Assembly: GCF_010500835.1 (NCBI RefSeq)
Contig: NZ_JAAAMJ010000005.1
Coordinates: 1 to 64,000, forward strand
Reading direction: 5' to 3'
Length of the DNA: 64,000 nucleotides
From: Aurantimonas aggregata
GTDB taxonomy: Bacteria; Pseudomonadota; Alphaproteobacteria; Rhizobiales; Rhizobiaceae
The notes under the pieces are model-generated. The model worked only from the letters and a program-made list of their open reading frames with translations. It was not told the origin of the DNA and searched no databases. Made by a program: the position numbers and the translations under genes. Each line of letters begins with the position of its first letter. The stretch's first letter is position 1. Below, piece after piece: positions 33,521 to 49,137 of this stretch.

Positions 33521-34531
33521 ATGACCGATCTTCTCAGCCGGCTCCTTGCGGAAAAGGGCGTCCTCCTCGCCGACGGCGCGACGGGCACCAATCTGTTCGA
33601 GGTCGGCCTCGAATCCGGCGAAGCGCCGGAGATGTGGCTGGAGACCCATCCGGACCGGATCGAGGCGCTGCATCAGGCCTTCGTCGACAATGGCGCCGAC
33701 ATCATCCTGACCTGCTCCTTCGGGGCCAACAGGCATCGACTGAAGCTGCACCAGGCCGAGGACCGCGTCCACGAGATCAACCGGATCGCTGCCGAACTCG
33801 CCCGCTCCGTCGCCGATCGCGCAGGCCGACCGGTCGTGGTGGCAGGCTCCGTCGGGCCCACCGGCGAGCTGCTGGTGCCGCTCGGCGCGCTGATCTACGA
33901 GGACGCCGTCACCGCGTTCCGCGAGCAGGTGGAGGGGCTGAAGGCGGGCGGCGTCGACGTCATCTGGATCGAGACGATGTCGGCCGCCGACGAGGTCCGG
34001 GCTGCCGCAGAAGCCGCGATCGCGTGCGGCATGCCCTATACGGTCACCGGCTCCTTCGACAGCGCCGGCCGCACGATGATGGGCATCCACCCTAAGGAGT
34101 TCTACAAGGCGCTCGACGGCCTCTCCGAGGCGCCGCTGGCGATCGGGGCCAATTGCGGGGTCGGCGCATCCGACATGCTGGCGACGGGCCTCGAATTCGA
34201 GACGGCCGGCGCCTCGCTGCTGCTCAAGGCGAACTGCGGCATCCCCCGCTTCGTCGAGGGCAAGACCGTCTACTCCGGAACCCCGGAACAGATGGCGGAA
34301 TATACGCGCCTCTCCATCGATCTCGGCGCCCAGATCATCGGCGGCTGCTGCGGGACGTCGCCGCATCATCTGGGCGCCATGCGCGCGGCAATCGACACGC
34401 ATCATCGGCGCGAACGACCGACGGTGGAGGCGATCGTCGCTGCCGTCGGCCCGCTGGTGAACAAGCCGGCGTCCGAACTGGCGGAACCACGGGCTTCCAC
34501 CGGCGGCCGCCGCGGCCGCGCGCGGGATTGA
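33521..34531 (+). CDS. bmt: Homocysteine S-methyltransferase (Bmt/MetH-N type)
   Basis: A 336-residue homocysteine-binding barrel. It opens LADGATGTNLFEVGLESGEA, and the zinc thiols are the Cys in GANCGVG and the pair in IIGGCCGTSP. TCSFGANRHRL is the family substrate loop. In rhizobia such proteins are annotated betaine-homocysteine methyltransferases. By architecture it equals the N-terminal module of MetH and could take methyl from a corrinoid protein. It ends in a basic tail, GGRRGRARD, also seen in three other enzymes of this region. It lies downstream of the betaine importer; a 20-bp palindrome precedes it. Confidence 0.88.
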   Translation: MTDLLSRLLAEKGVLLADGATGTNLFEVGLESGEAPEMWLETHPDRIEALHQAFVDNGADIILTCSFGANRHRLKLHQAEDRVHEINRIAAELARSVADRAGRPVVVAGSVGPTGELLVPLGALIYEDAVTAFREQVEGLKAGGVDVIWIETMSAADEVRAAAEAAIACGMPYTVTGSFDSAGRTMMGIHPKEFYKALDGLSEAPLAIGANCGVGASDMLATGLEFETAGASLLLKANCGIPRFVEGKTVYSGTPEQMAEYTRLSIDLGAQIIGGCCGTSPHHLGAMRAAIDTHHRRERPTVEAIVAAVGPLVNKPASELAEPRASTGGRRGRARD

Positions 34532-34652
34532 ACTGCGGCGACCCGGACCGCATCGCCTACCCTATGGGCAGTTGCCATCTCCGCCGATCTTTCAGCCATA
34601 TTTAATAGGTTCACCTTCAACTGTTGTCTTGCACCGCAGCAGGATATGAACA

Positions 34653-37600
34653 GTGCGACTTCCAGCGTTTCTTTGTCTCGGCCTCGTCCTGCCCTCCGCG
34701 GCAACGGCCAACGCGACGGCAGCGTCCGCCGCGCCGCAGGAACCCGATGCCTTCGTCTGGGTGCTGGTGGCCGCCAGTTTGGTCCTCCTGATGCAGGTCG
34801 GGTTCCTGCTGCTCGAAGCCGGCCTCGTGCGCTCGAAGAACTCCGTCAACGTCGCGCAGAAGAACCTTCTCGACCTGCTGTTCTCGATCATCGCCTTCGC
34901 ACTGGTCGGCTTCATGATCGCCTTCGGCGTCGACAGCGGCTACGGCTTCGGCCTCGATGCCCGCTTCGCCGGCCTCTGGGATCTTGAGCCTGCCGAATAC
35001 GCCTTCTTTGCCTTCCAGGTGATGTTCTGCGGCACGGCGGCGACCATCGTCTCGGGGGCCGCCGCGGAGCGGCTGCGCCTCGGGACCTATGTCATCTGCT
35101 CGGTCGTCGTGGCGGCGCTCATCTACCCGGTCTTCGCCCACTGGGCCTGGGGCAGCGCGCTGGCGCCGAGCGCATCGGCCTTCCTGTCGAACATCGGCTT
35201 CATCGACTTCGCCGGCTCGACCGTCGTCCACAGCACCGGCGCCTGGGTCTCTCTCGCCGCCTGCCTGGTGCTAGGGCCGCGCATAGGCCGCTTCGAGGCA
35301 GATGGCAGGGTCCGCCGTATTCCCGGCCACAGCGCGGTGCTGGCGACGGTGGGCGCGATGGTGATCTTCGTTGGCTGGATCGGCTTCAATGGCGGCTCCA
35401 CCATCGTCCCGACCACGGCCATCGCCCATATCGTCGCGAACACCGTGCTGGCCGCCGGTGCCGGCGGCGTCGCCGGCTATTTCCTTGCCCTTCGGCATGA
35501 CGGGCTGGTCCTGCCGGAGAAGCCGATCTGCGGGCTGCTCGGCGGCCTGGTCGCCATCACCGCGGGATGCCATCTCCTCAACGCCACGGGCGCCATGGTC
35601 GTCGGCGCCGCCGGCGGGCTGATCGCCGTCTGGGGGAACCGGTTCATCGAACGGCGCTGCCGGATCGACGATGCGGTCGGCGCGATCGGCGTGCACGGCT
35701 TTGCCGGCGTTCTCGGCACGCTGGGCCTCGCCCTCCTGGCACCGCTTGACCAGATCGCGGCCGGCGGGCGCCTCTCACAGCTCACCATCCAGGCGGCCGG
35801 GGCGGGCCTGAACTTCATCTGGGCGTTCCCCCTCGCCTATCTGTTGTTCCGCGTCCTCGACCGGATCACGCCGATCCGGGTTTCGGCGGGCGACGAGGAG
35901 CGCGGCCTCAACCAGTCCGAGCACGCAACCAGCCTCGGCCTCGGAACCATGGAAACGGCGCTACGCCAGATCCTCGACGGCCACGCCGACATCAGCCACC
36001 GCATCCCCATCGAGACCGGCGACGACGCCGAACTGACGACGCGCCTGTTCAATGCCTTCCTCGACAAGGTCGAGGACGGCGAACTTGCCCGGCGCGCCAG
36101 CGAGGACGTGCTGCGCGCCTCGCAGGAAGCGGAACGCCTGTCGGCCATGGCCGGGGCGGTATTCGAAGGCATCGCGGTCACCGTCGCCGGACGGATCATC
36201 GACGCCAATGTCGCCTTCGAGCGGCTCACCGGCCTGTCGGGGCGGGAGCTGATCAGGCGCACCATGGAGGATGTCGTCGCCGAGGCGGACGTCGAGACGC
36301 TCGCCCGGGCGCTCGCGACGCGCGAAGTCACGCCGCTGGAGCTTCGGCTGCGGCGTGCCGACGGGGTGGAGATTCCGGTGGAGATCCGCTCGCGCACGAT
36401 CATCTTCCGCGGCGAGGAGACGCGGGTCAGCGCCTTCGTCGACCTGCGCGAACGCAAGGAGGCGGAGGAGCGCATCCGCTTCACGGCGCAGCACGATGCC
36501 CTGACCGGATTGCCCAACCGCCTCCTGTACCAGCAGTTCTTCGAGGAGACGCTGGCGGAGGTGCGCAAGGGCAACCGCGTCGCCGCCCTGATTGCCGTCG
36601 ACCTCGACCGGTTCAAGGACATCAATGATCTCTACGGCCATCCGGCCGGCGATGCGGTCATCCGCGCCTCGGCGAAGAGGCTGCAGACGCTGTTCGGCAA
36701 GGCGGGCTTCGTCGCGCGCCTCGGCGGCGACGAATTCGGCGTCATCCTGCCGGACGTCGCCTTCGCCAACCAGGTTGCGGATTTCGCCTTCCGGATCGTG
36801 CACGAGCTGGGCGCGCCGATCGATGCCGGCAACGGCGTCAGGATCCGTCCCGGCGCCAGCGTCGGCTTTGCCCTCGCCCCGCGCGACGGCATCGAGCCGG
36901 GCACGGTCATCTCCCGCGCCGATGTCGCGCTCTACCACGCCAAGCGCAGCGGCCGGAACAACTACGCCGGCTTCGAAAGCGGCATGGACGCCGAGCTGCG
37001 CATGCGGCGTATCCTCGAATCCGACCTCGGCAACGCCGTCGCCCGCAACGAGCTGTATCTGTGCTTCCAGCCGCGGATCGTGCTGGGCGAGGAGCGGATC
37101 GGCAGCTACGAGGCGCTGGTTCGATGGCAGCATCCGGAGCGCGGCCTGATCAGCCCCGCCACCTTCATTCCCATCGCCGAACAGGCCGGCAAGATCGGCG
37201 AGATCGGCGAATGGGTGCTGCGCGAAGCCTGCCGGCAGTCGCTGGCGCTGCTGGACGGCGCGGCGATCAGCGTCAATGTCAGCGCCTATCAGCTGCGCAA
37301 TCGCAATTTCGTCGAGACGACGCTGGCCATCCTGGAGGAGGTCGGCTTCCCGCCGACACGGCTGGAGCTGGAGCTGACGGAGAGCATCCTGATCGAGGAC
37401 CGCGACCGCGCGCTCGGCGTCCTGAGAGCGTTGAAGCGACACGGCATCAAGGTCGCGCTCGACGATTTCGGCACCGGCTATTCCTCGCTCAGCTACCTGC
37501 GGACCTTCCCGTTCGACTCGATCAAGATCGACCAGTCGTTCATCCGCAACCTGTCGATCGACGAGAGCTCCCTGGCGATTGCCGATGCCGTCATCGAACT

Positions 37601-37865
37601 CGGTCGGGCGCTCGATCTGACCATCGTCGCCGAAGGTGTCGAGACTGAGGAGCAGCTGGCGATCCTGGCAGGGCGGCGCTGCGACGAGATCCAGGGTTAT
37701 CTGTTCGCCCATCCCCTGCCCGCCAGCGAAGTCATGCGGCAGATCCCAGCGAGCATCGCCGCCCAGATCGCCAGGACGAGGCTCCGGCCGCAGGGCGGCG
37801 GCACGCGCCGGCTCGAAGGCAGGGATCGGCGGTCGTCCGCTCGTCGGGCGCGCGAGCTGTCCTGA
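34653..37865 (+). CDS. Ammonium transporter (Amt) fused to PAS-GGDEF-EAL
   Basis: A 1070-residue fusion. Residues about 28-415 form an Amt/Rh channel domain (FLLLEAGLVRSKNSVNVAQK, then FQVMFCGTAATIVSGAAAER and ST(V)VHSTGAW). A linker and PAS-like domain follow (about 496-605), then an intact GGDEF loop (LGGDEFGVIL, 691-695) and a complete EAL domain (EAL 820-822, DDFGTGYSSLSYL, KIDQSF, AEGVET). A signal peptide precedes the Amt part, as in other Amts. It should sense or carry ammonium and adjust c-di-GMP. GTG 34653 is the only start keeping the signal. Demethylation and breakdown of betaine releases nitrogen, a possible link to its neighbours. Confidence 0.93.
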   Translation: MRLPAFLCLGLVLPSAATANATAASAAPQEPDAFVWVLVAASLVLLMQVGFLLLEAGLVRSKNSVNVAQKNLLDLLFSIIAFALVGFMIAFGVDSGYGFGLDARFAGLWDLEPAEYAFFAFQVMFCGTAATIVSGAAAERLRLGTYVICSVVVAALIYPVFAHWAWGSALAPSASAFLSNIGFIDFAGSTVVHSTGAWVSLAACLVLGPRIGRFEADGRVRRIPGHSAVLATVGAMVIFVGWIGFNGGSTIVPTTAIAHIVANTVLAAGAGGVAGYFLALRHDGLVLPEKPICGLLGGLVAITAGCHLLNATGAMVVGAAGGLIAVWGNRFIERRCRIDDAVGAIGVHGFAGVLGTLGLALLAPLDQIAAGGRLSQLTIQAAGAGLNFIWAFPLAYLLFRVLDRITPIRVSAGDEERGLNQSEHATSLGLGTMETALRQILDGHADISHRIPIETGDDAELTTRLFNAFLDKVEDGELARRASEDVLRASQEAERLSAMAGAVFEGIAVTVAGRIIDANVAFERLTGLSGRELIRRTMEDVVAEADVETLARALATREVTPLELRLRRADGVEIPVEIRSRTIIFRGEETRVSAFVDLRERKEAEERIRFTAQHDALTGLPNRLLYQQFFEETLAEVRKGNRVAALIAVDLDRFKDINDLYGHPAGDAVIRASAKRLQTLFGKAGFVARLGGDEFGVILPDVAFANQVADFAFRIVHELGAPIDAGNGVRIRPGASVGFALAPRDGIEPGTVISRADVALYHAKRSGRNNYAGFESGMDAELRMRRILESDLGNAVARNELYLCFQPRIVLGEERIGSYEALVRWQHPERGLISPATFIPIAEQAGKIGEIGEWVLREACRQSLALLDGAAISVNVSAYQLRNRNFVETTLAILEEVGFPPTRLELELTESILIEDRDRALGVLRALKRHGIKVALDDFGTGYSSLSYLRTFPFDSIKIDQSFIRNLSIDESSLAIADAVIELGRALDLTIVAEGVETEEQLAILAGRRCDEIQGYLFAHPLPASEVMRQIPASIAAQIARTRLRPQGGGTRRLEGRDRRSSARRARELS

Positions 37866-37891
37866 TCGGGCGGCGGACGCCGCTTATCAGG
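37861..37891. terminator. Hairpin between convergent genes
   Basis: Two-part stem: CCTGAT (37861-37866)/ATCAGG (37886-37891) outside, GCGGCG (37870-37875)/CGCCGC (37878-37883) inside. It overlaps the stop codons of both convergent genes, the Amt fusion and the adenylate cyclase, so it can end both transcripts. Confidence 0.5.
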
Positions 37892-39470
37892 AAACGACGG
37901 GCTGGTGCCGCCGCAGTGCTGCGACGGCCTGCGTCAGCACGCCTTCGATCCGGGTCCGTTCGGCGTCGGTCAGCCGCTCGACATCGAGGAAGATCCGCGC
38001 GCCGTCGGTGAATTCGTTGATGACGCTGGGCATCGCCTCGGGCGCCTCGTCGTGGATGCCCTCGACGACGTAGGGGATCACCTCGCGGCTGATGCCCTTG
38101 AGCGAGATCGGTGCCAGCGCCCTCGCCCGCACCGAGTCCTCGACCAGCGCGAAGGTCTCATAGCTCATGACGATACCGCCGGGCTCGGCGATCTGTTCGA
38201 GCCGGGCGGCAAGGTTCGCCTCGGCGCCGATGATCGTGTAGTCCATGCGATCGACGCTGCCGAAATTACCGACATTGCAGAAGCCGGTATTGATGCCCAT
38301 CCGCGCCTGGAACGGCTTCTCGATGCCGCGGCGGCGCCACTCGGCGTTGAGCCCGACCATTCGGCGCTGCATGGCGATGGCCATGGCGAGGCACGCCCGC
38401 GCGTCCTCCCGCGTGCCTTGAGTCTCGGGGTCGCCGAAGAAGGCGAGGATCGCGTCGCCGATGAACTTGTCGACCGTCGCGCCGTATTCGTGGGCGATCT
38501 TCGACATCTCGGTGAAATACTCATTCAGGAGCTGCGTCAGCTCCTCCGGCTGCAGCCGTTCGGACGTGACGGTGAAGTCCTTGATGTCGGAGAAGAAGAT
38601 CGTCAGCTTCTTGCGCTCGGTGGAGATCACCACGTCGCGCTCGCCGCTGAAGATGCTGCGGTAGACCTGCGGCGACAGATATTTCGAGATCTTCATCGAG
38701 ACAGCCGCCAGGAAGGTGTTGGCCTCCTCGAGGTCGGCGTTCATCCGGCCGAAGGCCCGCGCCTGGCGCCATTGCATGGCGGCGAAGCCGATGCCGAAGA
38801 TACCGGCGCCAACGAAATAGGACAGCAGGTACTTGAACGAGAAGAGGTTGGCGGCGATCGGCTGCTGCACCTCGATCTCCTGGATGCCCCGCACGTCGCC
38901 GACGTTCCAGTCGCGTTTCGGGCTCTCCGGATGGCTGTTGTGGCAGGCAACGCAGGCCTCGCCCATGACCACCGGCGCGGCGAGGCGGATGCGGCGGTCG
39001 AGCATCGTCCCGTCGATGGCGGTGATCAGCGGCCGGTCCGCGCCCTCGGTGCGGAAGGTCTGCAGCGCCTGTTTCTCGAAATCGTCCAGCCGGTGCGGTT
39101 CGCGCGCCGCGAAGACGAGGTCGGAAACGAAGCGATAGCGCATGTTGTCTCCCTGGTGCCCGACGACGTCGCCGAGCTCGAGGGATAGCGTCGCGGGGAT
39201 CGGGATGGCGCCGGGTATATCGGCGTAGTTATGCGCCGCGATGGTCTGGCCGCCCGGATTGGCGAGGACCCGCCCGACGACGTTGCGGGCATAGTAGGTG
39301 CGGATGTCGGTGATCATCGCGTTCAGGCTGTTGGCCTGCGCATTCAGCGCCGTGTCGGAGAGATGGCGAAGGTCGAGCCAGACGGCGACGGGCAGCAGCA
39401 CCAGGGCCAAGGCGACGGCAGCGGCGAACCAGATCGGCCGGGCCATGAAATAACGAAACAACGACCCCAT
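37887..39470 (-). CDS. Class III adenylate/guanylate cyclase with c-type haem motif sensor
   Basis: A 527-residue membrane protein. Segments at about 12-32 and 208-233 bracket a periplasmic DUF3365-like sensor with CVACH at residues 173-177, a single c-type haem-attachment motif. The cytoplasmic cyclase has metal ligands Asp295 (FFSDIKDFT) and Asp339 (FIGDAILAFFGD). Asp410, Asn419 and Arg423 (DYTIIGAEANLAAR) select ATP and stabilise the transition state, so activity is expected. Covalent haem suggests redox or gas sensing. It converges with the Amt-GGDEF-EAL gene, pairing two nucleotide second-messenger systems. Confidence 0.92.
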   Translation of the reverse strand: MGSLFRYFMARPIWFAAAVALALVLLPVAVWLDLRHLSDTALNAQANSLNAMITDIRTYYARNVVGRVLANPGGQTIAAHNYADIPGAIPIPATLSLELGDVVGHQGDNMRYRFVSDLVFAAREPHRLDDFEKQALQTFRTEGADRPLITAIDGTMLDRRIRLAAPVVMGEACVACHNSHPESPKRDWNVGDVRGIQEIEVQQPIAANLFSFKYLLSYFVGAGIFGIGFAAMQWRQARAFGRMNADLEEANTFLAAVSMKISKYLSPQVYRSIFSGERDVVISTERKKLTIFFSDIKDFTVTSERLQPEELTQLLNEYFTEMSKIAHEYGATVDKFIGDAILAFFGDPETQGTREDARACLAMAIAMQRRMVGLNAEWRRRGIEKPFQARMGINTGFCNVGNFGSVDRMDYTIIGAEANLAARLEQIAEPGGIVMSYETFALVEDSVRARALAPISLKGISREVIPYVVEGIHDEAPEAMPSVINEFTDGARIFLDVERLTDAERTRIEGVLTQAVAALRRHQPVVS

Positions 39471-39697
39471 CGACCGACCCCGCGAGACGAATTCAGTCGA
39501 TATAAGCCCAAGTCGGGTCTGCTGTCAGTTGCAGGGCCGCCGCTGTCCCCACGAGTTCATGTCAAAAGACATCTGTCGCCGGCCTGGCAGCGATACTATT
39601 CGTCCTGTGTGCTGCGCCAGACGGCACGGTGAATCGTGTCGGCCACGCGGCCGGCGGACGATGCTTCCCCTTTGGCGGCCGGATCCGCCTCTCCCTT

Positions 39698-41281
39698 TCA
39701 GGCAAAGGCGTCCGGTTCGGACTCCTTGCGACGGGCGACGAAGGCAGCCAGCGCTTCGGCGATGGCGGGATCGAGCGGTGGCGGGGCATAGGCATCGAGC
39801 CACCGCCGGCACAGCGTGTTGGCGCGGGACTCGGCCCGCTGGCCGCCCTCGGCGCTCCATTGCTCGAACGAATTGTTGTCGGCGATGGTCGAGCGATAGA
39901 ACGCCGTCTGGAAGTTGTCCTGGGTGTGCTGGCAGCCGAGATAGTGACTGCCCGGGCCGACCTCGCGGATCGCCGACATGGCCTGGCCGTTCTCCGAGAG
40001 ATCGACGCCCCGCATCAGCGCCTGCATGGCGCCGAGCTGATCGCAGTCCATGACGAATTTCTCGTAGCAGGCTGCAAGCCCTCCCTCGAGCCAGCCGGCG
40101 GCATGCAGCACGAAATTCGTGCCCGCCATCAGCGTCGAGTTGAGCGTGTTGGCGCTCTCATAGGCCGCCTGCGCGTCCGGAACCTTCGACGCGCAGAGCG
40201 AGCCGCCGGTGCGGAAGGGCAAGCCCAGCCGCCGCGCCAACTGCGCTGCGCCGAAGGAGACCAGCGACGGCTCGGGCGTGCCGAAGGTCGGGGCGCCCGA
40301 CTGCATCGAGATCGACGAGGCGAAGGTGCCGAAGACCACCGGCGCGCCCGGCCGGCAGAGCTGGGTGAAGGCGGCGCCCGCGAGCACCTCGGCGAGAACC
40401 TGAGTCAGCGTACCGGCGACGGTCACCGGGCTCATCGCGCCGGCGAGGATGAAGGGCGTGACGATGCAGGCCTGGTTGGCGCGGGCATAGACCTTCAGCG
40501 CACCCAGCATCGTGCCGTCGAAGGTCATTGGCGAATTGGCGTTGATCAGGTTGATGACGACGCAGTTCTGGTCGACGAATTCCTCGCCGAACAGGATGCG
40601 GCACATCGCGACCGTGTCTTCCGCCCGCTCCGGCGCGGTGACCGAGCCCATGAACGGCTTGTCCGACAGCGTCATGTGGGCATGCACCATGTCGAGGTGC
40701 CGCTTGTTCACGGCGACGTCGACGGGCTCGCATACGGTGCCGCCCGAGTGATGGATTGCCGGCGCCATGTAGGCGAGCTTCACGAAATTGCGGAAATCCT
40801 CGATCGTCGCATAGCGGCGTACCCCGTCGAGGTCGCGGACGAAGGGTGGGCCGTAGACCGGCGCGAAGACGGTGGCGTTGCCGCCGATCTCGACGGAGTT
40901 TTCCGGATTGCGGGCATGCTGGACGAAGCTCCTCGGCGCGGTCTTCAGAAGTTCGCGGCAGAGCCCCTTCGGGAAGCGCACGCGCTCGCCGCTGACATCG
41001 GCGCCGGCCGCCCGCCACATCGCAAGCGCCTCGGGATCGTCGCGGAACTCGATGCCGATCTCCTCGAGGACGATGTCGGCATTGGCCTCGATCAGCGCGG
41101 CGCCGGCTTCGTCGAGAACTTCGTAGACCGGCAGGGCGCGGCGGATATAGGCGAGCTTCTGGCCCGAGCCGGTCTGGACGCGCGCCGCGCGCCGCGCCGA
41201 CGCACCGCCGCCGGCACCCCGGCTGCGCCGGCTGCCTTCGCTGGCCGCAACCTCGGCGGTCTCGACGGTTTCGTTGTCCAT
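39698..41281 (-). CDS. mttB: Non-pyrrolysine MttB-family corrinoid methyltransferase
   Basis: A 527-residue member of the trimethylamine methyltransferase superfamily. Family blocks are LIEANADIVLEEIGIEFRDD, VFAPVYGPPFVRDLDGVRRY, HMTLSDKPFMGSVT, VINLINANSPMTFDGTMLG and HYLGCQHTQDNF. There is no in-frame amber codon, so it is of the non-Pyl type typified by MtgB, which demethylates glycine betaine. It should pass the methyl group to the divergently encoded corrinoid protein. The N-terminus carries a basic low-complexity tail, GSRRSRGAGGGASARRAAR. ATG 41281 follows GGGAGG. Confidence 0.9.
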   Translation of the reverse strand: MDNETVETAEVAASEGSRRSRGAGGGASARRAARVQTGSGQKLAYIRRALPVYEVLDEAGAALIEANADIVLEEIGIEFRDDPEALAMWRAAGADVSGERVRFPKGLCRELLKTAPRSFVQHARNPENSVEIGGNATVFAPVYGPPFVRDLDGVRRYATIEDFRNFVKLAYMAPAIHHSGGTVCEPVDVAVNKRHLDMVHAHMTLSDKPFMGSVTAPERAEDTVAMCRILFGEEFVDQNCVVINLINANSPMTFDGTMLGALKVYARANQACIVTPFILAGAMSPVTVAGTLTQVLAEVLAGAAFTQLCRPGAPVVFGTFASSISMQSGAPTFGTPEPSLVSFGAAQLARRLGLPFRTGGSLCASKVPDAQAAYESANTLNSTLMAGTNFVLHAAGWLEGGLAACYEKFVMDCDQLGAMQALMRGVDLSENGQAMSAIREVGPGSHYLGCQHTQDNFQTAFYRSTIADNNSFEQWSAEGGQRAESRANTLCRRWLDAYAPPPLDPAIAEALAAFVARRKESEPDAFA

Positions 41282-41558
41282 GGTACTGCCTCCCGGCGCT
41301 CGCCGATGCCGCGGACACGCTCGTGCCGCACGTTCCGCGCGCCGAGAATACCAGAAGTCGGGGCCGGCCCCGCCGTCCCGGTTGCGAATTCTGGTGACGC
41401 GGCAAGGACAGTGCGGCACGCGGCGCCGGCCGAGGCGTCACGTCGCTTTCCGCGTTCTCCATGTCGCTCGGACGGTATGCGATCTCAACGCCTTGCCCTA
41501 AGCTCCCTCTAATCGAGGCGATGCATCATGCAGCCTGCCCGCTCGAGGAACAGCCGTC

Positions 41559-42248
<690 letters not shown>

Positions 42249-42314
42249 TCGAAGCGAGGACGCCGTTACCTGCACGTGGCGGCAGCGTCGCCCCGGCCTT
42301 TTCCGGCGCCCCGA

Positions 42315-42351: not shown

Positions 42352-42374
42352 AATCCTGGAAGAATGATGCAGGC

Positions 42375-42521
42375 TTATCGCGCCACGTCGTTGACGGCTG
42401 CGCCCGTCGCATCAACGGTGTTGCCTACGTCACGGCCGACGCCGCGGACCGTGTTGGCGCAAGCGGAGAGCATCAGGGCTCCGGCCAGGATCGTGGTCAC
42501 TACTGCGAGGCGGTTGGTCAT
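42375..42521 (-). CDS. Entericidin-family small lipoprotein
   Basis: A 48-codon gene. The N-terminus MTNRLAVVTTILAGALMLSA leads into lipobox LSAC. The short mature part NTVRGVGRDVGNTVDATGAA is the entericidin EcnA/B signature of repeated G-x-D/N-V-x-x-T. Entericidins are outer-membrane-associated stress lipoproteins. ATG 42521 follows GGAGAG. A perfect EcfG-type promoter lies upstream, so the gene should belong to the general stress regulon. It is inserted between two plus-strand genes of the corrinoid island and may be independent of them. Confidence 0.85.
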   Translation of the reverse strand: MTNRLAVVTTILAGALMLSACANTVRGVGRDVGNTVDATGAAVNDVAR

Positions 42522-42554
42522 GATCAACTCTCCGTTGGAACAATGTGACGAAAA

Positions 42555-42579
42555 AACGTTCGGCCGGCTGACAGGTTCC
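42555..42579 (-). promoter_or_regulatory. EcfG-type general stress promoter
   Basis: On the minus strand GGAAC (42579-42575) and CGTT (42558-42555) are separated by exactly 16 bp, the consensus of the alphaproteobacterial general-stress sigma factor EcfG. A transcript starting about 7 bp downstream would have a leader of roughly 27 nt with the GGAGAG ribosome site of the entericidin gene. Confidence 0.8.
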
Positions 42580-42611
42580 CGCGAGGTCGGCGTTTTTCGT
42601 TCAAGCTGCTT

Positions 42612-43244
42612 ATGGACGCTTTGGTGACGGGTGCAACCAATATCGGCGGGGAGCCTCTGACCGTCATCGCTTGCGGCGCGATCGCCCGCGAGATCGGCGC
42701 CGTGGTGGCAGCCAACCGTCTCGACCACGTCACCCTCACCTGCCTGCCGGCGATCCTGCACAATGCGCCGCAGAAGATCGTCCCGGCAGTCGAGGCGGCG
42801 ATCGCGGCGGCGCGGGGACGCGGGTGCCAGCGGATCTTCGTCGCCTATGCCGACTGCGGGACAGGCGGCGCCCTCGACGCGCTTTGCCAGCGCGAGAAGG
42901 TGGCGCGCATTCCCGGCCCGCACTGCTACGCCTTCTTCCGCGGCAACCGGCAATTCGCCGAGGAGGCCGATGCGCATCTGACGACCTTCTGGCTGACCGA
43001 CTTCCTCGCCCGGCAGTTCGACGCCTTCGTTGCCAGGCCGTTCAAGCTGGATCGGCATCCCGAGATGGTCGGCATGCTGTTCGGCAATTACGAGCGGGTC
43101 GTGTATCTGGCGCAGACGGACGACGCCGTGCTGGACCGTCGGGCCCGCGCCATCGCCGCGCGGCTTGGCCTTGCCTACGAGCGCCGGCTGGTCGGCTACG
43201 GCGATCTCACCCCGGCGCTTGTCGACGCCGCCGCAGGCGGATAG
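42612..43244 (+). CDS. DUF1638 protein of corrinoid methyltransferase loci
   Basis: A 210-residue soluble protein. Signature parts are LTVIACGAIAREI, LPAILHNAPQKIVPAVEAAI, FVAYADCGTGGALDALC and IPGPHCYAFFRGN. Cys and His residues in these segments (ACGA, DCGTGG, CQRE, HCYAF) are spaced like a metal or corrinoid contact site. DUF1638 genes are often found next to MttB-type and corrinoid genes, and one is linked to methylated-amine use in methanogens. Its biochemical role is unproven. ATG 42612 is the first in-frame start. Confidence 0.88.
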   Translation: MDALVTGATNIGGEPLTVIACGAIAREIGAVVAANRLDHVTLTCLPAILHNAPQKIVPAVEAAIAAARGRGCQRIFVAYADCGTGGALDALCQREKVARIPGPHCYAFFRGNRQFAEEADAHLTTFWLTDFLARQFDAFVARPFKLDRHPEMVGMLFGNYERVVYLAQTDDAVLDRRARAIAARLGLAYERRLVGYGDLTPALVDAAAGG

Positions 43245-43555
43245 GGCGACGCCTCGTCGACCGGACCTGTTGCAAGTTGCGGCCGTGACGCGCTTCGGGT
43301 CTTGCGACCCGATCCAGCGATGCGAGTGTGTCCTAAGTCACATTGCGGGAAGAAGCTCATTGGCTTAAATCGAACCGCTTTCCGGAACGCGGCGAAAAGT
43401 CGAGCTGGCGGCGCCATAGAGGATGTCACGTCTTGATATCCCGGCGGCAACGCTGACTTAACTGCCCATCGGGCATAGTCGTCTCCCAGATGGGCAAAAG
43501 GCGGAGCATCGGGCATGGGGCCCGGCTTCCGGTACGGGACTTTGAATTCGTCACC
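43245..43555. other. Spacer with a hairpin before the ExoD-family gene
   Basis: 311 bp. A 7-bp hairpin TCGGGTC (43295-43301)/GACCCGA (43306-43312) with a TTGC loop lies 50 bp after the DUF1638 stop. There is no T-run. A lower-GC stretch (about 43330-43375) probably carries the promoter of the next gene. If translation begins at ATG 43490, the gene-free part is shorter. Confidence 0.45.
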
Positions 43556-44239
43556 ATGTCCTCCCCTGAAGCCTCAGCTCCCCGAGCCGCCCGTGCGCCG
43601 ACCGCGGCTTTCGCGCGCCTGCGCGAATCGCTCCGACGCCGGAGGGGCAAGCGCCAACGCCGCATCTCTGCGATCCTGCGGGCCTACAGCCATCGCGACC
43701 GGGATATTCCGACGATCGGCGATTTGTCCGAGGCTTTCGACGCACGCTCCTTCGGCGCGTTCTTCATCGTCTTCGGCGGGGCCAACCTCATTCCGCTGCC
43801 GCCCGGCACGTCGCTGGTGTTCGGCGTGCCGCTGCTGCTCTTCACCATCCAGCTCGCGATCGGCCGGCATCGCCTGTGGTTGCCCCAGCGGGTGCGGAAC
43901 ATCCGCCTGAAGCCGGAGACCATGAGCATGCTGGTCGTGCGGCTGGGTCCCTATCTGCGCAAGGTCGAGCGCCTGGCGCGCCACCGCGCCTGGCCGGAGC
44001 CGGAGTGGGTCGTCCTGTCGGCGATCGGCTGGTTCTCCTTCGTGATGGCTCTCCTGGTGGCGATCCCCTTTCCGCTGACCAACATGTTCCCCGGCGTGTC
44101 GATCGCGCTTGCAGGGGTCGCCATCACGGCCCGGGACGGGCTCTGGCTGATCGCCTCGGTCGTCGTCGGAATCGGCGCGGCGCTCTTCCTCGCCGGCGTT
44201 TACGGCGCGGCGCTCTTCGCCTTCCTGCAGCTGTTCTGA
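43556..44239 (+). CDS. ExoD-family membrane protein
   Basis: A 227-residue protein of the exopolysaccharide-synthesis ExoD family. A basic cytoplasmic N-terminus is followed by FIVFGGANLIPLPPGTSLVF and three or four further hydrophobic segments (WFSFVMALLVAIPFPLTNMF and others). IPTIGDLSEAFDARSFGAF is the family lead-in. Start ATG 43556 (MSSPEAS) or ATG 43490 are both possible, as neither has a strong ribosome site. ExoD is needed for alkaline tolerance and symbiosis in Sinorhizobium, but its mechanism is unknown. No functional tie to the corrinoid genes is evident. Confidence 0.85.
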   Translation: MSSPEASAPRAARAPTAAFARLRESLRRRRGKRQRRISAILRAYSHRDRDIPTIGDLSEAFDARSFGAFFIVFGGANLIPLPPGTSLVFGVPLLLFTIQLAIGRHRLWLPQRVRNIRLKPETMSMLVVRLGPYLRKVERLARHRAWPEPEWVVLSAIGWFSFVMALLVAIPFPLTNMFPGVSIALAGVAITARDGLWLIASVVVGIGAALFLAGVYGAALFAFLQLF

Positions 44240-44339
44240 GACGCCGACCGCCGCATGTCGCAAAGCCGCCGTGTCCCGTCGCGACCGGCACAACCTTGCC
44301 TCAACGACGCGTCCACATTGTTCGCCACGGAGGATCCCG

Positions 44340-44639
44340 ATGGCGGAATTGCAGGTCGTCTACTGGCGTGACATCCCGGCCCAGGTGATCGTGCGGCAGG
44401 GCCGCAAGGCGGCCAGGCGCGAGCTGCCGAAACGGTTCATCGAGGCAGTCGACATGTGCGCGATGAGCGTCGGGGCCAAGGATTCCGACGCCTATCTGGC
44501 GGAATGGCGCCGGGCGAGCACCGAGCGGGACGCCGACGATCTCGAAAGCGAGGCCGAGCGCGCCGCCGCCGAAATCGACGCCACCTACAACAGGGAGCGG
44601 CTTCGCTCGCTCATCGACAATGCGGGGCGCGAGCCATGA
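44340..44639 (+). CDS. PF13769 'virulence factor' family protein
   Basis: A 99-residue soluble protein beginning AELQVVYWRDIPAQVIVRQG, which I recognise as the PF13769 'Virulence_fact' family. The name comes from an early screen and says little about mechanism. The C-terminal half is a charged helix (ERDADDLESEAERAAAEIDA). It starts at ATG 44340 after GGAGGA and overlaps the MTHFR-like gene by ATGA (44636-44639). The recurrent fusion or coupling of this family with MTHFR-like genes makes it a probable subunit or partner of that enzyme. Confidence 0.88.
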   Translation: MAELQVVYWRDIPAQVIVRQGRKAARRELPKRFIEAVDMCAMSVGAKDSDAYLAEWRRASTERDADDLESEAERAAAEIDATYNRERLRSLIDNAGREP

Positions 44640-45517
44640 GCCTGTCGCTGCCGCAGACGCGGGACGTCATCGACGCCTCGATCGAAGTCGCGCCGAAACA
44701 GGCGATGCGCTCGACGGATCTGCCCGGCCTGTTCCCCGCCGGCACCCGCGTCTACCTGACCGATGTCGGCATCGACAGCGTCAGAGACTTCGTCGCCGCC
44801 ACACGGCGGATTGCTGATCTCGGCTATGTCCCGGTGCCGCACATCCCCGCGCGCCGGATCCGGTCGCGCGAGGAGCTGCTGACCCGGATCCGCGCCTATG
44901 CCGAAGAGGCCGGGGTCACCGACGTGCTGGTGATCGGCGGCGGCCTCGACCGACCGGCCGGACCCTACACCTCGTCGATGGAAATCCTCGAAAGCGGCCT
45001 GCTCGATCGCCACGGCATCAGCGAAATCGGCGTTGCCGGCCATCCGGAGGGCTCGCCCGAGTTCTCGCTCGCCACGGCCGAGGCCGCGCTTCGTCTGAAG
45101 CGCGATTTCTGCGAGCGCACCGGCGCAAGGATGCGAATCGTCACGCAGTTCGGCTTTGACGCCGACGTCTACATCGACTGGGCGATGGCGGTGCGCGATA
45201 GCGGCATCGGCCTGCCGATCCATATCGGCGTCGCCGGGCCGGCCTCGATCACGACGCTGATCCGCTATGCCGCCCTCTGCGGCGTCGGCAGTTCGGTGAC
45301 GTTCCTGAAAAAGCGCACCGGTGCGCTGGCGGCGCTCGCCGCCCACCATTCGCCCGAGTCCGTCGTCGGGCCGATCGAGCAGCACTGGCGGCAGACGCCG
45401 GAATCGCCGGTCCGGCAGATCCACGTCTTCCCGTTCGGTGGCTTGGCCCAGTCGGCGGCCTGGCTGCGCGAGCGCGGCTCCTGGCCCGGCAGCGCCGCGG
45501 AGCGGGCGCTGGGGTGA
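44636..45517 (+). CDS. Methylenetetrahydrofolate reductase-like protein
   Basis: A 293-residue member of the MetF barrel superfamily. Visible blocks are DVIDASIEVAPKQ (catalytic-face Glu expected at the S-I-E-V position), DVLVIGGGLDRPAGPYTSSM, IGVAGHPEGSPE and VTQFGFDADVYIDW, the last being the FAD/folate-binding T-Q-F segment. In canonical MetF GVAGYPEKH contacts NADH. It would interconvert methylene-THF and methyl-THF, linking to the pterin methyltransferase downstream. It is translationally coupled to the PF13769 gene. It is sequence-divergent from E. coli MetF, so the physiological direction is uncertain. Confidence 0.88.
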   Translation: MSLSLPQTRDVIDASIEVAPKQAMRSTDLPGLFPAGTRVYLTDVGIDSVRDFVAATRRIADLGYVPVPHIPARRIRSREELLTRIRAYAEEAGVTDVLVIGGGLDRPAGPYTSSMEILESGLLDRHGISEIGVAGHPEGSPEFSLATAEAALRLKRDFCERTGARMRIVTQFGFDADVYIDWAMAVRDSGIGLPIHIGVAGPASITTLIRYAALCGVGSSVTFLKKRTGALAALAAHHSPESVVGPIEQHWRQTPESPVRQIHVFPFGGLAQSAAWLRERGSWPGSAAERALG

Positions 45518-45554
45518 GACCGACGATGTTGACCATCCGTCCCCGGAGACGTCC

Positions 45555-46499
45555 ATGACCCGCACCATCGTCGCCTCCGCCCGCCGGGAGATCGTCATCG
45601 GCTTCGACGAGCCGTTCTGCGTCATCGGCGAACGGATCAACCCGACCGGCCGCAAGAAGCTCGCCGCCGAGATGGTGGCCGGCAATTTCGAGACGGTGAC
45701 CAGCGACGTGCTGCAGCAGGTCGCTGCGGGCGCCACCATGCTCGACGTCAATGCCGGGGTCACCGCCGTCGACCCCAATGCCTCCGAACCGCCGCTGCTG
45801 CTCGAGACGATCCGGCTGGTCCAGAGCCTCACCGACCTGCCGATCTCGATCGACTCTTCGGTATCGCTGGCGATCAAGGCGGCGCTCGAGATTGCCGAGG
45901 GCCGGCCGCTGGTCAATTCGGTCACCGGCGAATTGGAGAAGCTCGAAGCCATCCTGCCATTGATCAGGCAATACGACGTGCCGGTCGTGGCGATCTCCAA
46001 CGACGAGAACGGCATTTCGGAAGATCCGGACGTCCGCTTCGAGGTCGCGCGAAGGATCGTCCGCCATGCGGCCGACTACGGCATCAAGCCCTGTGACATC
46101 GTCGTCGACCCGCTGGTGATGCCGATCGGCGCGATGGGCACCGCCGGGCGGCAGGTCTTCGCGCTCGTGCGGCGGTTGCGCGAGGAGCTCGGCGTCAACA
46201 CGATCTGCGGCGCCTCCAACATCTCATTCGGCCTGCCGCATCGCCATGGCATCAACGCCGCCTTCCTGCCGATGGCGATCGCCGCCGGGATGACCTCGGC
46301 GATCATGAACCCCTGCCGGCCGCAGGAAATGGAAGCGGTGCGCGCCGCCAACGTGCTGATGGGCAACGACCCGTCCTGCATGGGCTGGATCCACAGCTAT
46401 CGCGACGCCGTGCCTTCGGCGGGGATGGCGGCTGCGGCTCCTGCCACTTCGACCGGACGCCGGCGCGGTGGCCGCGAAGCGCGACGGCCCACAGCGTGA
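45555..46499 (+). CDS. Methyltetrahydrofolate:corrinoid methyltransferase (DHPS-like, MeTr)
   Basis: A 314-residue pterin-binding TIM barrel. Motifs are FCVIGERINPTGRKKL, MLDVNAGV, PISIDSSV, PLVNSVTGE, DIVVDPLVMPIG and ICGASNISFGLPHR. The GERINPTG/NSV/SNISFGLP set is that of MeTr/MtvA and the MetH pterin module, not of dihydropteroate synthase proper. It should move methyl groups between the corrinoid protein and THF. The C-terminus bears an Arg/Gly tail, TGRRRGGREARR. It starts 38 bp after the MTHFR-like gene and is followed by a probable terminator. Confidence 0.93.
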   Translation: MTRTIVASARREIVIGFDEPFCVIGERINPTGRKKLAAEMVAGNFETVTSDVLQQVAAGATMLDVNAGVTAVDPNASEPPLLLETIRLVQSLTDLPISIDSSVSLAIKAALEIAEGRPLVNSVTGELEKLEAILPLIRQYDVPVVAISNDENGISEDPDVRFEVARRIVRHAADYGIKPCDIVVDPLVMPIGAMGTAGRQVFALVRRLREELGVNTICGASNISFGLPHRHGINAAFLPMAIAAGMTSAIMNPCRPQEMEAVRAANVLMGNDPSCMGWIHSYRDAVPSAGMAAAAPATSTGRRRGGREARRPTA

Positions 46500-46520
46500 C
46501 CATGAATCATCGACTGGTTC

Positions 46521-46566
46521 GGCCGCGCGGAGACGCCGTCCCGTCTGACGGCGCGGTTTCTTTCTC
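46521..46566 (+). terminator. Probable terminator after the pterin methyltransferase gene
   Basis: CCGCGC (46523-46528) and GCGCGG (46551-46556) form the outer stem; AGACG (46531-46535)/CGTCT (46542-46546) lies inside. TTTCTTTC follows at once. It is 24 bp after the stop codon. Confidence 0.65.
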
Positions 46567-46652
46567 GCAGATGCGAAATAAACTTGCCGTGGCACCAACT
46601 ATCTCGCCAGCCTTAGCGTTTATGAGGGACAGGTCCACAAGGAATGCCCTCG

Positions 46653-47021
46653 ATGATTCGCCGCCACCCCTTTCCCGCCGTCTTTGCCCACGCGCCCAAG
46701 ACGGCAGCGGAAATGACCACGCTGATGATCATGTCGCCGTTTGTCATCGGCACGCGCCTGACGCAGTTCTGGGCGTCCGCCGCCTCGCCGCAGGCCAGCG
46801 ACCGCGAAGAGGCGGCCCAGATGGTCAGCGAGAAGATGCAGGCCGTCGGCGAATCGCTGATGGCGATGAACCTCGCCGCGGTCGAGGCGGTGACCAAGGC
46901 CACGCTGGCCGCCGCGACCGGATCGTATTCGAACGACAATCATGGCGACGCCATCTTCTCGGCCGGGCTGAAGCCCTATTCGCAGCGCGTCCGGGCGAAC
47001 CGCAAACGCCTGTCGCGCTAA
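46653..47021 (+). CDS. Small helical protein, unknown (phasin-like composition)
   Basis: A 122-residue protein with no signal peptide. The central part, SDREEAAQMVSEKMQAVGES followed by LMAMNLAAVEAVTKATLAA, is an amphipathic helix rich in Ala/Met, as in phasin-like proteins. MTTLMIMSPFVIGTRLTQFW is more hydrophobic. The end is basic (RVRANRKRL). ATG 46653 follows AAGGA with 9-bp spacing. It lies between the pterin methyltransferase and corrinoid activator genes and may be an accessory or merely a neighbour. No family assignment is secure. Confidence 0.6.
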   Translation: MIRRHPFPAVFAHAPKTAAEMTTLMIMSPFVIGTRLTQFWASAASPQASDREEAAQMVSEKMQAVGESLMAMNLAAVEAVTKATLAAATGSYSNDNHGDAIFSAGLKPYSQRVRANRKRLSR

Positions 47022-47052
47022 CCCTGCTCGCGCCTTCGTTCCGGAACCACCG

Positions 47053-49137
47053 ATGAGCGGCGAGACTGATCCCCTCGTCCTGTTCATGCCGTCCGGCCGG
47101 CGCGGCCGCTTCGCGCGCGGCACGTCGCTGATCGCTGCCGCCCGCTCGCTCGGCGTCCATGTCGAAAGCGTCTGCGGCGGACGCGGCATCTGCGGCCGAT
47201 GCCAGGTCGAGATCGTCGAAGGTGCCTTTGCCAAGCACCAGATCGTCTCGGCCGCCGATCATCTGTCGCCGGTCTCGGCGACGGAAATCCGCTACGCGGA
47301 GAAGCGCGTCCTGAAGCCCGGCCGGCGGCTGTCCTGCGCCACATCGATCGAGGGCGACCTCGTCGTCGACCTGCCATCGGACATGGCGGTGAACACGGCG
47401 GTCGTGCGCAAGGCGGTCGACACGCGGGTCTTCCCGCGCGACCCGGCGATCCGCCTGCTCCTTGTCGAGGTGCCCGAGCCGGACATGCACGCCCCGCTCG
47501 GCGATCTCGACCGGGTGTTCGCGGCGCTGGAGAGTGACTGGGGCCTCGCCCGGCCGACGGTCGAACACTCGATCCTGCCGCTGCTGCAGAAGGCGTTGCG
47601 CGAGGGCCCGTGGCAGGTGACCTGTGCCATCGCGCATGACCATGAGGAAGATCGCCCGCATCTGATGGCGATCTATCCGGGCCTGAAGAACGAGGCCTAC
47701 GGGATCGCCGTCGACATCGGCTCGACAACCATCGCGCTGTCCCTCTCCTCGCTGCTTTCCGGCGCGACCATCGCCGCCACCGGCGCCCCCAATCCGCAGA
47801 TCCGCTTCGGTGAGGACCTGATGAGCCGGGTCTCCTACGTCATGATGAACCCGGGCGGACGGGCCGAGATGACGCGCGCCGTCCGCGAGACCGTGCAGGC
47901 GATGATCGAGACCGTTGCCACCGAGGCCAATGTCTCGACGGGCGACATCATGGACTGTGTCTTCGTCGGCAATCCGGTGATGCACCATCTGTTTCTCGGC
48001 ATCGACCCGACCGAGCTCGGTCAGGCGCCGTTCGCGCTGGCCCTCTCGGGCGCCCTGGCACTGCCTGCGGCCGATCTCGACCTGAGCCTGCATCCTGTGG
48101 CCCGTGCCTATCTGCTGCCGTGCATCGCCGGCCATGTCGGCGCTGACGCCGCGGCGGCGACGCTGTCGGAGGGCCCGCACCGCCAGGACGAGATGATGCT
48201 CCTCGTCGATGTCGGGACCAATGCCGAAATCGTGCTCGGCAACCGCCACCGGCTGCTGGCCGCCTCTTCGCCCACCGGCCCGGCCTTCGAGGGCGCCGAG
48301 ATTTCCTGCGGCCAGCGCGCCGCACCGGGCGCGATCGAACGGGTGCGGATCGACCCGGTCACGCTGGAGCCGCGCTTTAAGGTGATCGGCATCGACATCT
48401 GGTCCGACGATCCGGGCTTTGCCGAAGCGGCAGCGGCGCTCGGCGTGACCGGCATATGCGGTTCCGGCATCGTCGAGGTGGTGGCCGAGTTGTTCCTCAC
48501 CGGCATCGTCACCGAGGATGGCGTCATCGACGGTTCGCTGGCGGCCCGATCGCCCCGGATCGTGCAGAGCGGGCGGACGTTCGCCTATGTCCTGCACGAG
48601 ACGCCGCAGCGAACGCTGACCATCCTGCAGACCGATATCCGCGCCATCCAGCTGGCCAAGGCGGCGCTGTATGCAGGGATCAAGCTGCTGATCGACCGTT
48701 TCTCGCAGCCCGGCGGCCCGGCCGTGCAGATCGATCGGATCGCGCTGGCCGGCGCGTTCGGCTCGTTCATCGAGCCGCGCTACGCGATGGTGCTCGGGCT
48801 CGTTCCCGACTGCGATCTCGAGCGGTGCCAGGCGGTCGGCAACGCCGCCGGCGCCGGTGCCCGCATGGCGCTGCTCAATCGCGCCTATCGCCGCGAAATC
48901 GAAGCGACGGTCAGCCGCATCGAGAAGATCGAGACGGCGCTGGAGCCGGCCTTCCAGGATCATTTCGTCGCGGCCATGGCCTTCCCGAACAAGCGCGACG
49001 CCTTTCCTTCGCTTGCTCTTGTGCAGGCGCTGCCGAACCGGGACGCAAGCGGCATGCTGTTGCCCGGCCAGGGTGCTTCGGCGTCCGGCACGCCGGATCG
49101 CGGGCGCCGCGGCGGCCGGGCGGGTCGCTCGACCTGA
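47053..49137 (+). CDS. Corrinoid-activating ASKHA ATPase with [2Fe-2S] domain (RACo/RamA-like)
   Basis: A 694-residue reductive activator. The N-terminal plant-type ferredoxin domain has Cys41, Cys47, Cys50 (CGGRGICGRC) and Cys95 as cluster ligands. A linker precedes the ASKHA/DUF4445 domain: GIAVDIGSTTIALSL (phosphate 1), VFVGNPVMHHLFLG, LLVDVGTNAEIVLGN (phosphate 2), GICGSGIVEV and IALAGAFGSFIEP. It uses ATP to return inactive Co(II) corrinoid proteins to Co(I), the job done by the AdoMet domain in MetH. The C-terminus carries the tail GRRGGRAGRS. It lies 31 bp after the small helical gene. Confidence 0.93.
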   Translation: MSGETDPLVLFMPSGRRGRFARGTSLIAAARSLGVHVESVCGGRGICGRCQVEIVEGAFAKHQIVSAADHLSPVSATEIRYAEKRVLKPGRRLSCATSIEGDLVVDLPSDMAVNTAVVRKAVDTRVFPRDPAIRLLLVEVPEPDMHAPLGDLDRVFAALESDWGLARPTVEHSILPLLQKALREGPWQVTCAIAHDHEEDRPHLMAIYPGLKNEAYGIAVDIGSTTIALSLSSLLSGATIAATGAPNPQIRFGEDLMSRVSYVMMNPGGRAEMTRAVRETVQAMIETVATEANVSTGDIMDCVFVGNPVMHHLFLGIDPTELGQAPFALALSGALALPAADLDLSLHPVARAYLLPCIAGHVGADAAAATLSEGPHRQDEMMLLVDVGTNAEIVLGNRHRLLAASSPTGPAFEGAEISCGQRAAPGAIERVRIDPVTLEPRFKVIGIDIWSDDPGFAEAAAALGVTGICGSGIVEVVAELFLTGIVTEDGVIDGSLAARSPRIVQSGRTFAYVLHETPQRTLTILQTDIRAIQLAKAALYAGIKLLIDRFSQPGGPAVQIDRIALAGAFGSFIEPRYAMVLGLVPDCDLERCQAVGNAAGAGARMALLNRAYRREIEATVSRIEKIETALEPAFQDHFVAAMAFPNKRDAFPSLALVQALPNRDASGMLLPGQGASASGTPDRGRRGGRAGRST

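What the first reader, a model, noticed from the sequence alone, without database searches (positions are those of the whole stretch)
33521..49137. A dispersed corrinoid methyl-transfer system that equals a split MetH plus an MttB entry point
Within 16 kb are separate genes for a homocysteine module (33521), a B12 module (41559), a pterin module (45555), a RACo/RamA-type reactivator (47053), an MTHFR-like enzyme (44636) and a non-Pyl MttB (39698). In MetH three of these are one polypeptide, reactivated by an AdoMet domain. Split methionine synthases with a RamA-like activator have, to my knowledge, been reported from fitness data in Roseobacter-group bacteria. MtgB-type glycine betaine demethylation has been described mainly in anaerobes. 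Here both could share one corrinoid carrier, letting betaine methyl groups go either to THF or directly to homocysteine. That dual use is inference.
Basis: partly seen in the sequence, partly recalled or inferred. Interest (0 to 1): 0.78.

Follow-up and report, generated by a model that had tools for sequence, protein, structure and literature searches.

The report
Betaine-demethylating B12 methyltransferase gene cluster
This bacterium carries a known modular vitamin-B12 enzyme system that probably strips methyl groups from glycine betaine and can also pass them on to make methionine; the idea was published in 2025 and the gene cluster is common in its relatives.

Summary
Together they are the published MtgBCDE system (MttB-type demethylase, corrinoid protein, methyl-THF transferase, homocysteine module) with a RACo-type activator and DUF1638. 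Its dual use, betaine demethylation plus methionine synthesis through one corrinoid protein, was shown in Ruegeria pomeroyi in 2025 (PMC12478193). MttB and MtgC are divergent in 78 of the 78 related loci that hold both, of 80 fetched. The own genome has an intact MetH of 1742 bits, so the cluster is not this cell's only methionine synthase.

What I add is comparative. In 120 genomes of the order the homocysteine module occurs in 47, all with the corrinoid protein. It is in 23 of 27 MetH-positive genomes with MttB and in 0 of 66 without. Four MetH-negative genomes keep the synthase modules but no MttB. This fits a corrinoid module better than a stand-alone betaine-homocysteine enzyme, on which two 2025 papers disagree. 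Shared ancestry was not corrected for. The MTHFR-like gene is nearest to PDB 7xg9, from recall the SYK-6 enzyme, whose subfamily is said to prefer methyl-THF oxidation.

The parts
33521..34531 (+). MtgE: homocysteine S-methyltransferase module (annotated in NCBIfam as betaine--homocysteine S-methyltransferase)
   Evidence: NF005718 500.6 bits over cut-off 338; PF02574; nearer MetH homocysteine domains (159 bits) than BHMT (63 bits) among solved chains
39698..41281 (-). MttB/MtgB: non-pyrrolysine MttB-superfamily methyltransferase, candidate glycine betaine:corrinoid methyltransferase
   Evidence: PF06253 787 bits; 9yce 'glycine betaine methyltransferase' 409.8 bits, 2qne 412.8, 4yyc 906.2; Pyl position of 7xcl aligns to Leu; only one in the genome
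41559..42248 (+). MtgC: corrinoid-binding protein with DxHxxG motif
   Evidence: PF02607 and PF02310; GDIHDIG in the sequence; NF047996 210 bits, below its cut-off of 370
42612..43244 (+). DUF1638 protein, candidate helper in corrinoid reactivation
   Evidence: PF07796, E 3.7e-27; required for methionine synthesis in Phaeobacter inhibens (PMC5764234, passages)
44636..45517 (+). MTHFR-like protein (MetF2 position), candidate methyl-THF oxidase
   Evidence: PF02219 30.8 bits; 7xg9 168.8 bits, every other solved chain at most 38.6
45555..46499 (+). MtgD: methyl-THF:corrinoid protein methyltransferase (pterin module)
   Evidence: NF005719 372.7 bits over cut-off 259; PF00809
47053..49137 (+). RACo-type reductive activator of corrinoid proteins
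   Evidence: PF14574, PF17651, PF17650, PF00111; 3zyy 307.2 bits
29825..33037 (+). Betaine-type ABC transporter: binding protein 29825-30874, permease 31048-31977, ATPase 31970-33037
   Evidence: PF04069, PF00528, PF00005; NCBIfam choline and ProX models hit only weakly, 28.8 and 26.9 bits, so the ligand is not fixed
51879..54401 (-). Dimethylglycine/sarcosine-dehydrogenase-like flavoprotein with folate-binding domain (start not refined)
   Evidence: PF01266, PF16350, PF01571, PF08669; no NCBIfam model among those shown reaches its cut-off

Best explanation
The locus is an MtgBCDE-type betaine catabolic system. Betaine is imported; MttB (MtgB) moves a methyl group from betaine to the Co(I) corrinoid of MtgC, leaving dimethylglycine; MtgD moves it to THF; the MTHFR-like enzyme oxidises methyl-THF to methylene-THF; the flavoprotein demethylates further; RACo, perhaps with DUF1638, re-reduces oxidised corrinoid. 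MtgE is a branch that passes the methyl group from MtgC to homocysteine. In this MetH-positive genome that branch would be conditional, used when betaine is present. Shown here: gene identity, conservation, co-occurrence, intact MetH. Shown elsewhere by genetics: MtgC and MtgD serve both roles in Ruegeria pomeroyi. Inferred: substrate, direction and partners in this organism.
For: All five modules and both reactivation genes in one locus. Divergent MttB/MtgC in 78 of 78 loci holding both, all of MttB, MtgC, DUF1638, MtgD, RACo in 70 of 80, MtgE in 59 of 80 within the 10 kb or less held. MtgE with MtgC in 47 of 47 genomes; with MttB in 23 of 27 MetH-positive genomes against 0 of 66 without MttB. 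Betaine-type transporter and dimethylglycine-type flavoprotein alongside. MTHFR nearest 7xg9. mtgC and mtgD mutants of R. pomeroyi lose both methionine synthesis and growth on betaine (PMC12478193). A S. meliloti metH mutant is a methionine auxotroph rescued by betaine, as told in PMC12366255.
Against: The substrate of this MttB is untested. A GbcAB-like Rieske pair elsewhere in the genome (416.6 bits, cut-off 670; 318.8 bits, cut-off 500) could be another demethylation route. The intact MetH means MtgE may be dispensable; three MetH-positive genomes with MttB, MtgC, MtgD and RACo lack MtgE. Purified P. inhibens Bmt made methionine from betaine without cobalamin (PMC12366255). The transporter matches named betaine/choline models only weakly.
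Confidence: 0.8

Rival explanations
1. MtgE (Bmt) is a stand-alone betaine- or DMSP-homocysteine methyltransferase needing no corrinoid; its nearness to MtgBCD only reflects shared use of betaine.
For: Purified P. inhibens Bmt formed methionine from betaine and DMSP (PMC12366255, passages). In MetH-positive genomes MtgE tracks MttB, which shared betaine use would also give.
Against: MtgE occurs in 0 of 69 genomes without MtgC and in 47 of 51 with it; four MetH-negative, MttB-negative genomes keep MtgE with MtgC, MtgD, DUF1638 and RACo, with no PF01717 match. The window protein is nearer MetH domains than BHMT. The published assay used 200 uM enzyme with 200 uM donor. PMC12478193 reports that this type lacks the human betaine-binding residues; I did not test those residues.
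Confidence: 0.12
2. The cluster is a second methionine synthase (MtgC, D, E) that backs up MetH, with MttB serving another purpose.
For: The modules are sufficient for methionine synthesis in P. inhibens (PMC5764234), and four genomes here have them without MttB or MetH.
Against: Of 66 MetH-positive genomes without MttB none has MtgE, so back-up of MetH alone is not seen in this sample. S. meliloti metH mutants are auxotrophs without betaine (told in PMC12366255).
Confidence: 0.1
3. The MttB acts on another methylated amine or sulfonium compound (proline betaine, carnitine, DMSP and the like), not mainly glycine betaine.
For: The superfamily has several substrates that share one corrinoid protein (PMC12478193); the tool listed up to 11 MttB matches in a genome of the order, 11 being the most it scored. 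A GbcAB-like pair might already handle betaine.
Against: This genome has a single MttB, in the conserved pair with MtgC; nearest characterised solved relatives include a glycine betaine methyltransferase (9yce); a betaine-type transporter and a dimethylglycine-type flavoprotein lie near.
Confidence: 0.15

Closest known systems
MtgBCDE of Ruegeria pomeroyi, with the colocated set of Sinorhizobium meliloti (PMC12478193, parts 1-4 of 6 read)
   Same: Same five roles: pfam06253 demethylase, corrinoid protein, pterin module, homocysteine module, plus reactivator, DUF1638 and a second MetF
   Different: R. pomeroyi lacks MetH; this genome has it. Genes are scattered in R. pomeroyi and clustered here. 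Whether the MTHFR here is the same type as R. pomeroyi MetF2 was not tested
Split methionine synthase of Phaeobacter inhibens (PMC5764234, passages read)
   Same: Separate homocysteine, pterin and B12 modules with a RamA-like protein and DUF1638
   Different: There it is the only proven methionine synthase; here a full MetH exists
MtgABC of Desulfitobacterium hafniense (described in PMC12478193; structure 2qne named as its MtgB in PMC9842639, passages read)
   Same: Non-pyrrolysine MttB homologue, 412.8 bits to 2qne
   Different: MtgC here scores 178-210 bits on the MtgC models, below cut-offs of 310 and 370; different branch of corrinoid proteins according to PMC12478193
RACo, activator of corrinoid iron-sulfur protein (PDB 3zyy, 4c1n)
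   Same: All four domains; 307.2 bits
   Different: Below the AcsV cut-off (370.9 against 800); its client here would be MtgC
Oxidation-preferring MTHFR of Sphingobium SYK-6 (PMC13001107, one passage read)
   Same: Window MTHFR is nearest to 7xg9 among solved chains (168.8 bits); I recall 7xg9 as the SYK-6 enzyme, no call names its organism
   Different: SYK-6 MTHFR is coupled to LigM O-demethylation, here to a corrinoid route; direction not tested

Membership tests
MtgBCDE (dual betaine demethylase and methionine synthase) | Separate pfam06253, corrinoid, pterin and homocysteine proteins in one genome | tested here: met
MtgBCDE (dual betaine demethylase and methionine synthase) | RACo/RamA-like activator and DUF1638 present | tested here: met
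MtgBCDE (dual betaine demethylase and methionine synthase) | MtgC and MtgD needed for both betaine growth and methionine synthesis | not testable with these tools
   Needs mutants; shown in R. pomeroyi (PMC12478193)
Split methionine synthase replacing MetH | Genome lacks MetH | tested here: not met
   MetH 1742.1 bits on contig C9
Split methionine synthase replacing MetH | Homocysteine, pterin and B12 modules as separate genes | tested here: met
   three module matches of the MetH model in the window
Glycine betaine methyltransferase MtgB | MttB superfamily without pyrrolysine | tested here: met
   PF06253 787 bits; Leu at the position of X in 7xcl, no in-frame stop
Glycine betaine methyltransferase MtgB | Methylates its corrinoid protein from glycine betaine | not testable with these tools
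   Needs purified proteins
Betaine-homocysteine methyltransferase (BHMT) | Betaine-binding residues of the human enzyme | not tested
   I made no alignment to BHMT; score only, 63.4 bits to 1lt7 against 159.4 to MetH 1q7m
RACo / AcsV | Fer2, linker, middle and C-terminal ASKHA domains | tested here: met
   but the AcsV model, 370.9 bits, is below its cut-off of 800, so RACo-like rather than AcsV

The most novel reading that the evidence does not exclude
In MetH-positive Hyphomicrobiales the MttB-MtgC-MtgE route is a corrinoid-mediated, THF-independent betaine:homocysteine methyltransferase: the methyl group goes from betaine through one B12 protein straight to homocysteine when betaine is plentiful, while MetH serves otherwise. 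This would explain why, in the genomes sampled, MtgE is kept beside MetH only where MttB is present.
Probability: 0.4. Interest if true: 0.55.

Novelty: new member of a known kind. Interest (0 to 1): 0.33.

Why it matters
The system itself is published. What is useful here is a comparative test of a live disagreement: whether MtgE/Bmt works alone on betaine (PMC12366255) or as a module on a shared corrinoid protein (PMC12478193). In the 120 genomes sampled, its co-occurrence with MtgC and the two-way dissociation from MttB and MetH favour the module. If a methyl group does pass from betaine through one corrinoid protein to homocysteine, nutrient use and amino-acid synthesis share one B12 carrier even in bacteria that keep MetH.

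Tried and rejected
Split MetH as the cell's only methionine synthase: set aside because of the intact MetH. Pyrrolysine MttB: rejected, Leu at the X position and no in-frame stop. ORF 46496-47056+ had no family match; the overlapping 46644-47021+ was translated but the family scan that named it failed as a whole, so it is unresolved. ExoD 43490-44239+ lies in the cluster and a relative is in 39 of 80 loci at only 30-38% identity; no role proposed. A sigma-70 scan of 41200-41700 found nothing. Rfam found no riboswitch in the 6.6-kb MetH locus L001. MetE: PF01717 gave one own-genome match, 53.2 bits, over Pfam's cut-off of 21; the protein passes the PRK06520 cut-off (403.7 against 313) but scores 35.5 on the full MetE model, cut-off 929.95; function unknown. 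A structure model of the MTHFR-like protein was made (mean pLDDT 81.8), but the fold search was not accepted, so its fold was not compared.

Weak points of the genome count: MetH and the other presence lists were copied by hand into the script. Genomes whose MetH lies in pieces on contig ends or as two adjacent frames (for example G031, G032, G036, G040, G087) were counted as MetH-positive. MtgC presence rests on my own threshold of 180 bits on NF047996, whose cut-off of 370 no genome reached. Three of the 120 genomes are over 5% contaminated (G005, G031, G104) and all three are MetH-, MttB- and MtgE-positive; without them 20 of 24. G081 has only a weak MttB match (6.6e-86) and lacks MtgC, RACo and an MtgD over cut-off; without it 23 of 26. 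G009 has an MtgC-like protein and RACo but no MttB or MtgE. MtgD and RACo were checked in 16 of 120 genomes and PF01717 in 11 of 120. The Fisher values ignore shared ancestry.
Full report
Observation. The MttB gene most likely starts at the ATG at 41281, minus strand. The nearest collected relatives of MttB are Hyphomicrobiales and other Alphaproteobacteria: 80 loci at 74-86% identity, the best an Aurantimonadaceae MAG. The genome is 4.86 Mb in 95 contigs, 100% complete by the tool's figure.

The split-MetH test. A full-length MetH lies on contig C9 (1742.1 bits, model positions 2-1182, no internal stop). The only PF01717 match scores 53.2 bits and is a short MetE-like protein (PRK06520, 403.7 bits, cut-off 313). 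So the cell does not depend on the cluster for having a methionine synthase gene. A canonical MetF also exists elsewhere (310.8 bits).

What the cluster is. MttB is closest to 4yyc (906 bits, deposited as putative trimethylamine methyltransferase), then 2qne and 9yce (413 and 410 bits; 9yce is deposited as glycine betaine methyltransferase), and far from pyrrolysine MttB (131 bits), whose X position falls on Leu here. The homocysteine module is nearer to MetH domains (159 bits) than to BHMT (63 bits), and its NC and GGCC cysteines align with those of MetH. The pterin module passes the cut-off for methyl-THF:corrinoid methyltransferase. The activator is RACo-like. A betaine-type ABC transporter lies upstream and a dimethylglycine/sarcosine-dehydrogenase-like flavoprotein downstream. 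A cobalamin riboswitch with a likely corrinoid transporter lies further upstream.

The MTHFR-like gene. By Pfam it is weak (30.8 bits). Against solved structures it hits 7xg9 with 168.8 bits and every other chain with at most 38.6; a ten-sequence profile gives 211.8 bits to 7xg9 and at most 35.7 to others. A 2026 review (PMC13001107, one passage read) describes a subfamily, exemplified by Sphingobium SYK-6, that prefers to oxidise methyl-THF. That 7xg9 is the SYK-6 protein is my recollection; no call names its organism, and a search for '7XG9' found no paper. If so, the gene fits the catabolic direction. In the 80 loci this type occurs in 9, a second type (from Sinorhizobium medicae; best NCBIfam model the bifunctional PRK08645, 192.3 bits, cut-off 453) in 54, both in none, neither in 17. 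Of the 72 loci with both DUF1638 and MtgD, 62 have one of the two between them and 10 have neither at this sensitivity.

Conservation. Of 80 loci, 78 hold MtgC, all 78 divergent from MttB; 77 hold DUF1638, 72 MtgD, 70 RACo, 59 MtgE, 39 an ExoD; MttB, MtgC, DUF1638, MtgD and RACo are all in 70. In 24 of the 59 loci with MtgE a related transporter ATPase lies upstream of it on the same strand. This is an ordinary, conserved locus of the order.

Phyletic test. In 120 genomes of the order drawn by the tool (at least 95% completeness requested) I combined MetH, MttB, MtgE, DUF1638 and MtgC. MetH-positive with MttB: 27 genomes, 23 with MtgE. MetH-positive without MttB: 66, none with MtgE. MetH-negative with MttB: 20, all with MtgE. 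MetH-negative without MttB: 7, of which 4 have MtgE and 3 have none of the markers. MtgE occurs in 47 genomes, all with MtgC; 4 genomes have MtgC but no MtgE; of 69 without MtgC none has MtgE. DUF1638 is missing in 3 of the 23 MetH-, MttB- and MtgE-positive genomes. The four MetH-negative, MttB-negative, MtgE-positive genomes also have MtgD and RACo and no PF01717 match. Three MetH-positive genomes (G014, G017, G083) have MttB, MtgC, MtgD and RACo without MtgE. So in this sample the synthase part and the demethylase part are each found without the other, in every such case with one methionine synthase of either kind left. Against over-reading: the Fisher values ignore shared ancestry; MetH-positive genomes with and without the MttB-MtgE pair occur side by side in only three families (f1, f22, f35); retention of MtgE differs only weakly between MetH-positive and MetH-negative MttB genomes (23 of 27 against 20 of 20, p = 0.13); and since MtgC comes with MttB in all but one MetH-positive genome that has it (G009), the link of MtgE to MttB cannot be separated there from its link to MtgC.

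What is published. The split synthase and its two reactivation genes were found by fitness data in Phaeobacter inhibens (PMC5764234, passages), which left unexplained why MetH-bearing Sinorhizobium meliloti also has the reactivators. The dual use was shown in Ruegeria pomeroyi with mtgC and mtgD mutants (PMC12478193, parts 1-4 of 6 and passages). That paper reports 28 of 239 metH genomes with MtgBCD, typically Hyphomicrobiales, SAR324 and certain Alphaproteobacteria, and argues that S. meliloti Bmt is MtgE. A second 2025 paper (PMC12366255, abstract, passages and one section) reports methionine synthesis from betaine by purified Bmt, at 200 uM enzyme and 200 uM donor, and recounts that a S. 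meliloti metH mutant is auxotrophic but rescued by betaine. In what I read I saw no count of MtgE beside MetH; the searches made were made, in open-licence papers only, and supplementary data could not be opened.

Mechanism and its limits. The best reading is betaine demethylation through MtgB, MtgC and MtgD with a conditional MtgE branch to methionine. The substrate of this MttB, the direction at MtgD and the use of MtgE in this organism are inferences. A GbcAB-like Rieske pair below the curated cut-offs could be a second demethylation route for betaine or a related compound.

Verdict. Observation confirmed. Interpretation partly supported and, in its main point, already published. The added value is the co-occurrence test and the closer placing of the MTHFR-like gene.

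Noticed in passing
window 6455-9649 +: Cobalamin riboswitch (125.6 bits) just upstream of an ABC ATPase, a periplasmic binding protein and a FecCD permease: probably a corrinoid uptake operon.
   Followed up: partly
window 44636-45517 and 80 loci: Two different MTHFR-like types occupy the same slot between DUF1638 and MtgD, 9 and 54 of 80 loci, never both.
   Followed up: partly
window 34653-37865 +: One reading frame joins an ammonium transporter domain to PAS, GGDEF and EAL domains, between MtgE and MttB.
   Followed up: no
window 37887-39470 -: Tll0287-like domain joined to an adenylate/guanylate cyclase domain, next to MttB; no relative in the 80 loci.
   Followed up: no
window 43490-44239 +: ExoD-family protein inside the cluster; a weak relative (30-38% identity) in 39 of 80 loci.
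   Followed up: partly
L088 (own genome, contig C3): GbcAB-like Rieske oxygenase and reductase pair below the curated cut-offs (416.6/670 and 318.8/500): a possible second betaine-type demethylation route.
   Followed up: partly
L096 2648-3643 (own genome, contig C1): Short MetE-like protein, PRK06520 403.7 bits over cut-off 313.
   Followed up: partly
window 59558-62402 -: A decaprenylphosphoryl-ribose-oxidase-like gene (319.7 bits, below cut-off 500) next to a UbiA-family prenyltransferase (PRK08238, 612.2 bits over 351).
   Followed up: no
window 20755-26603 +: TRAP transporter genes with malonyl-CoA decarboxylase and malonyl-CoA synthase: a likely malonate-use cluster.
   Followed up: no
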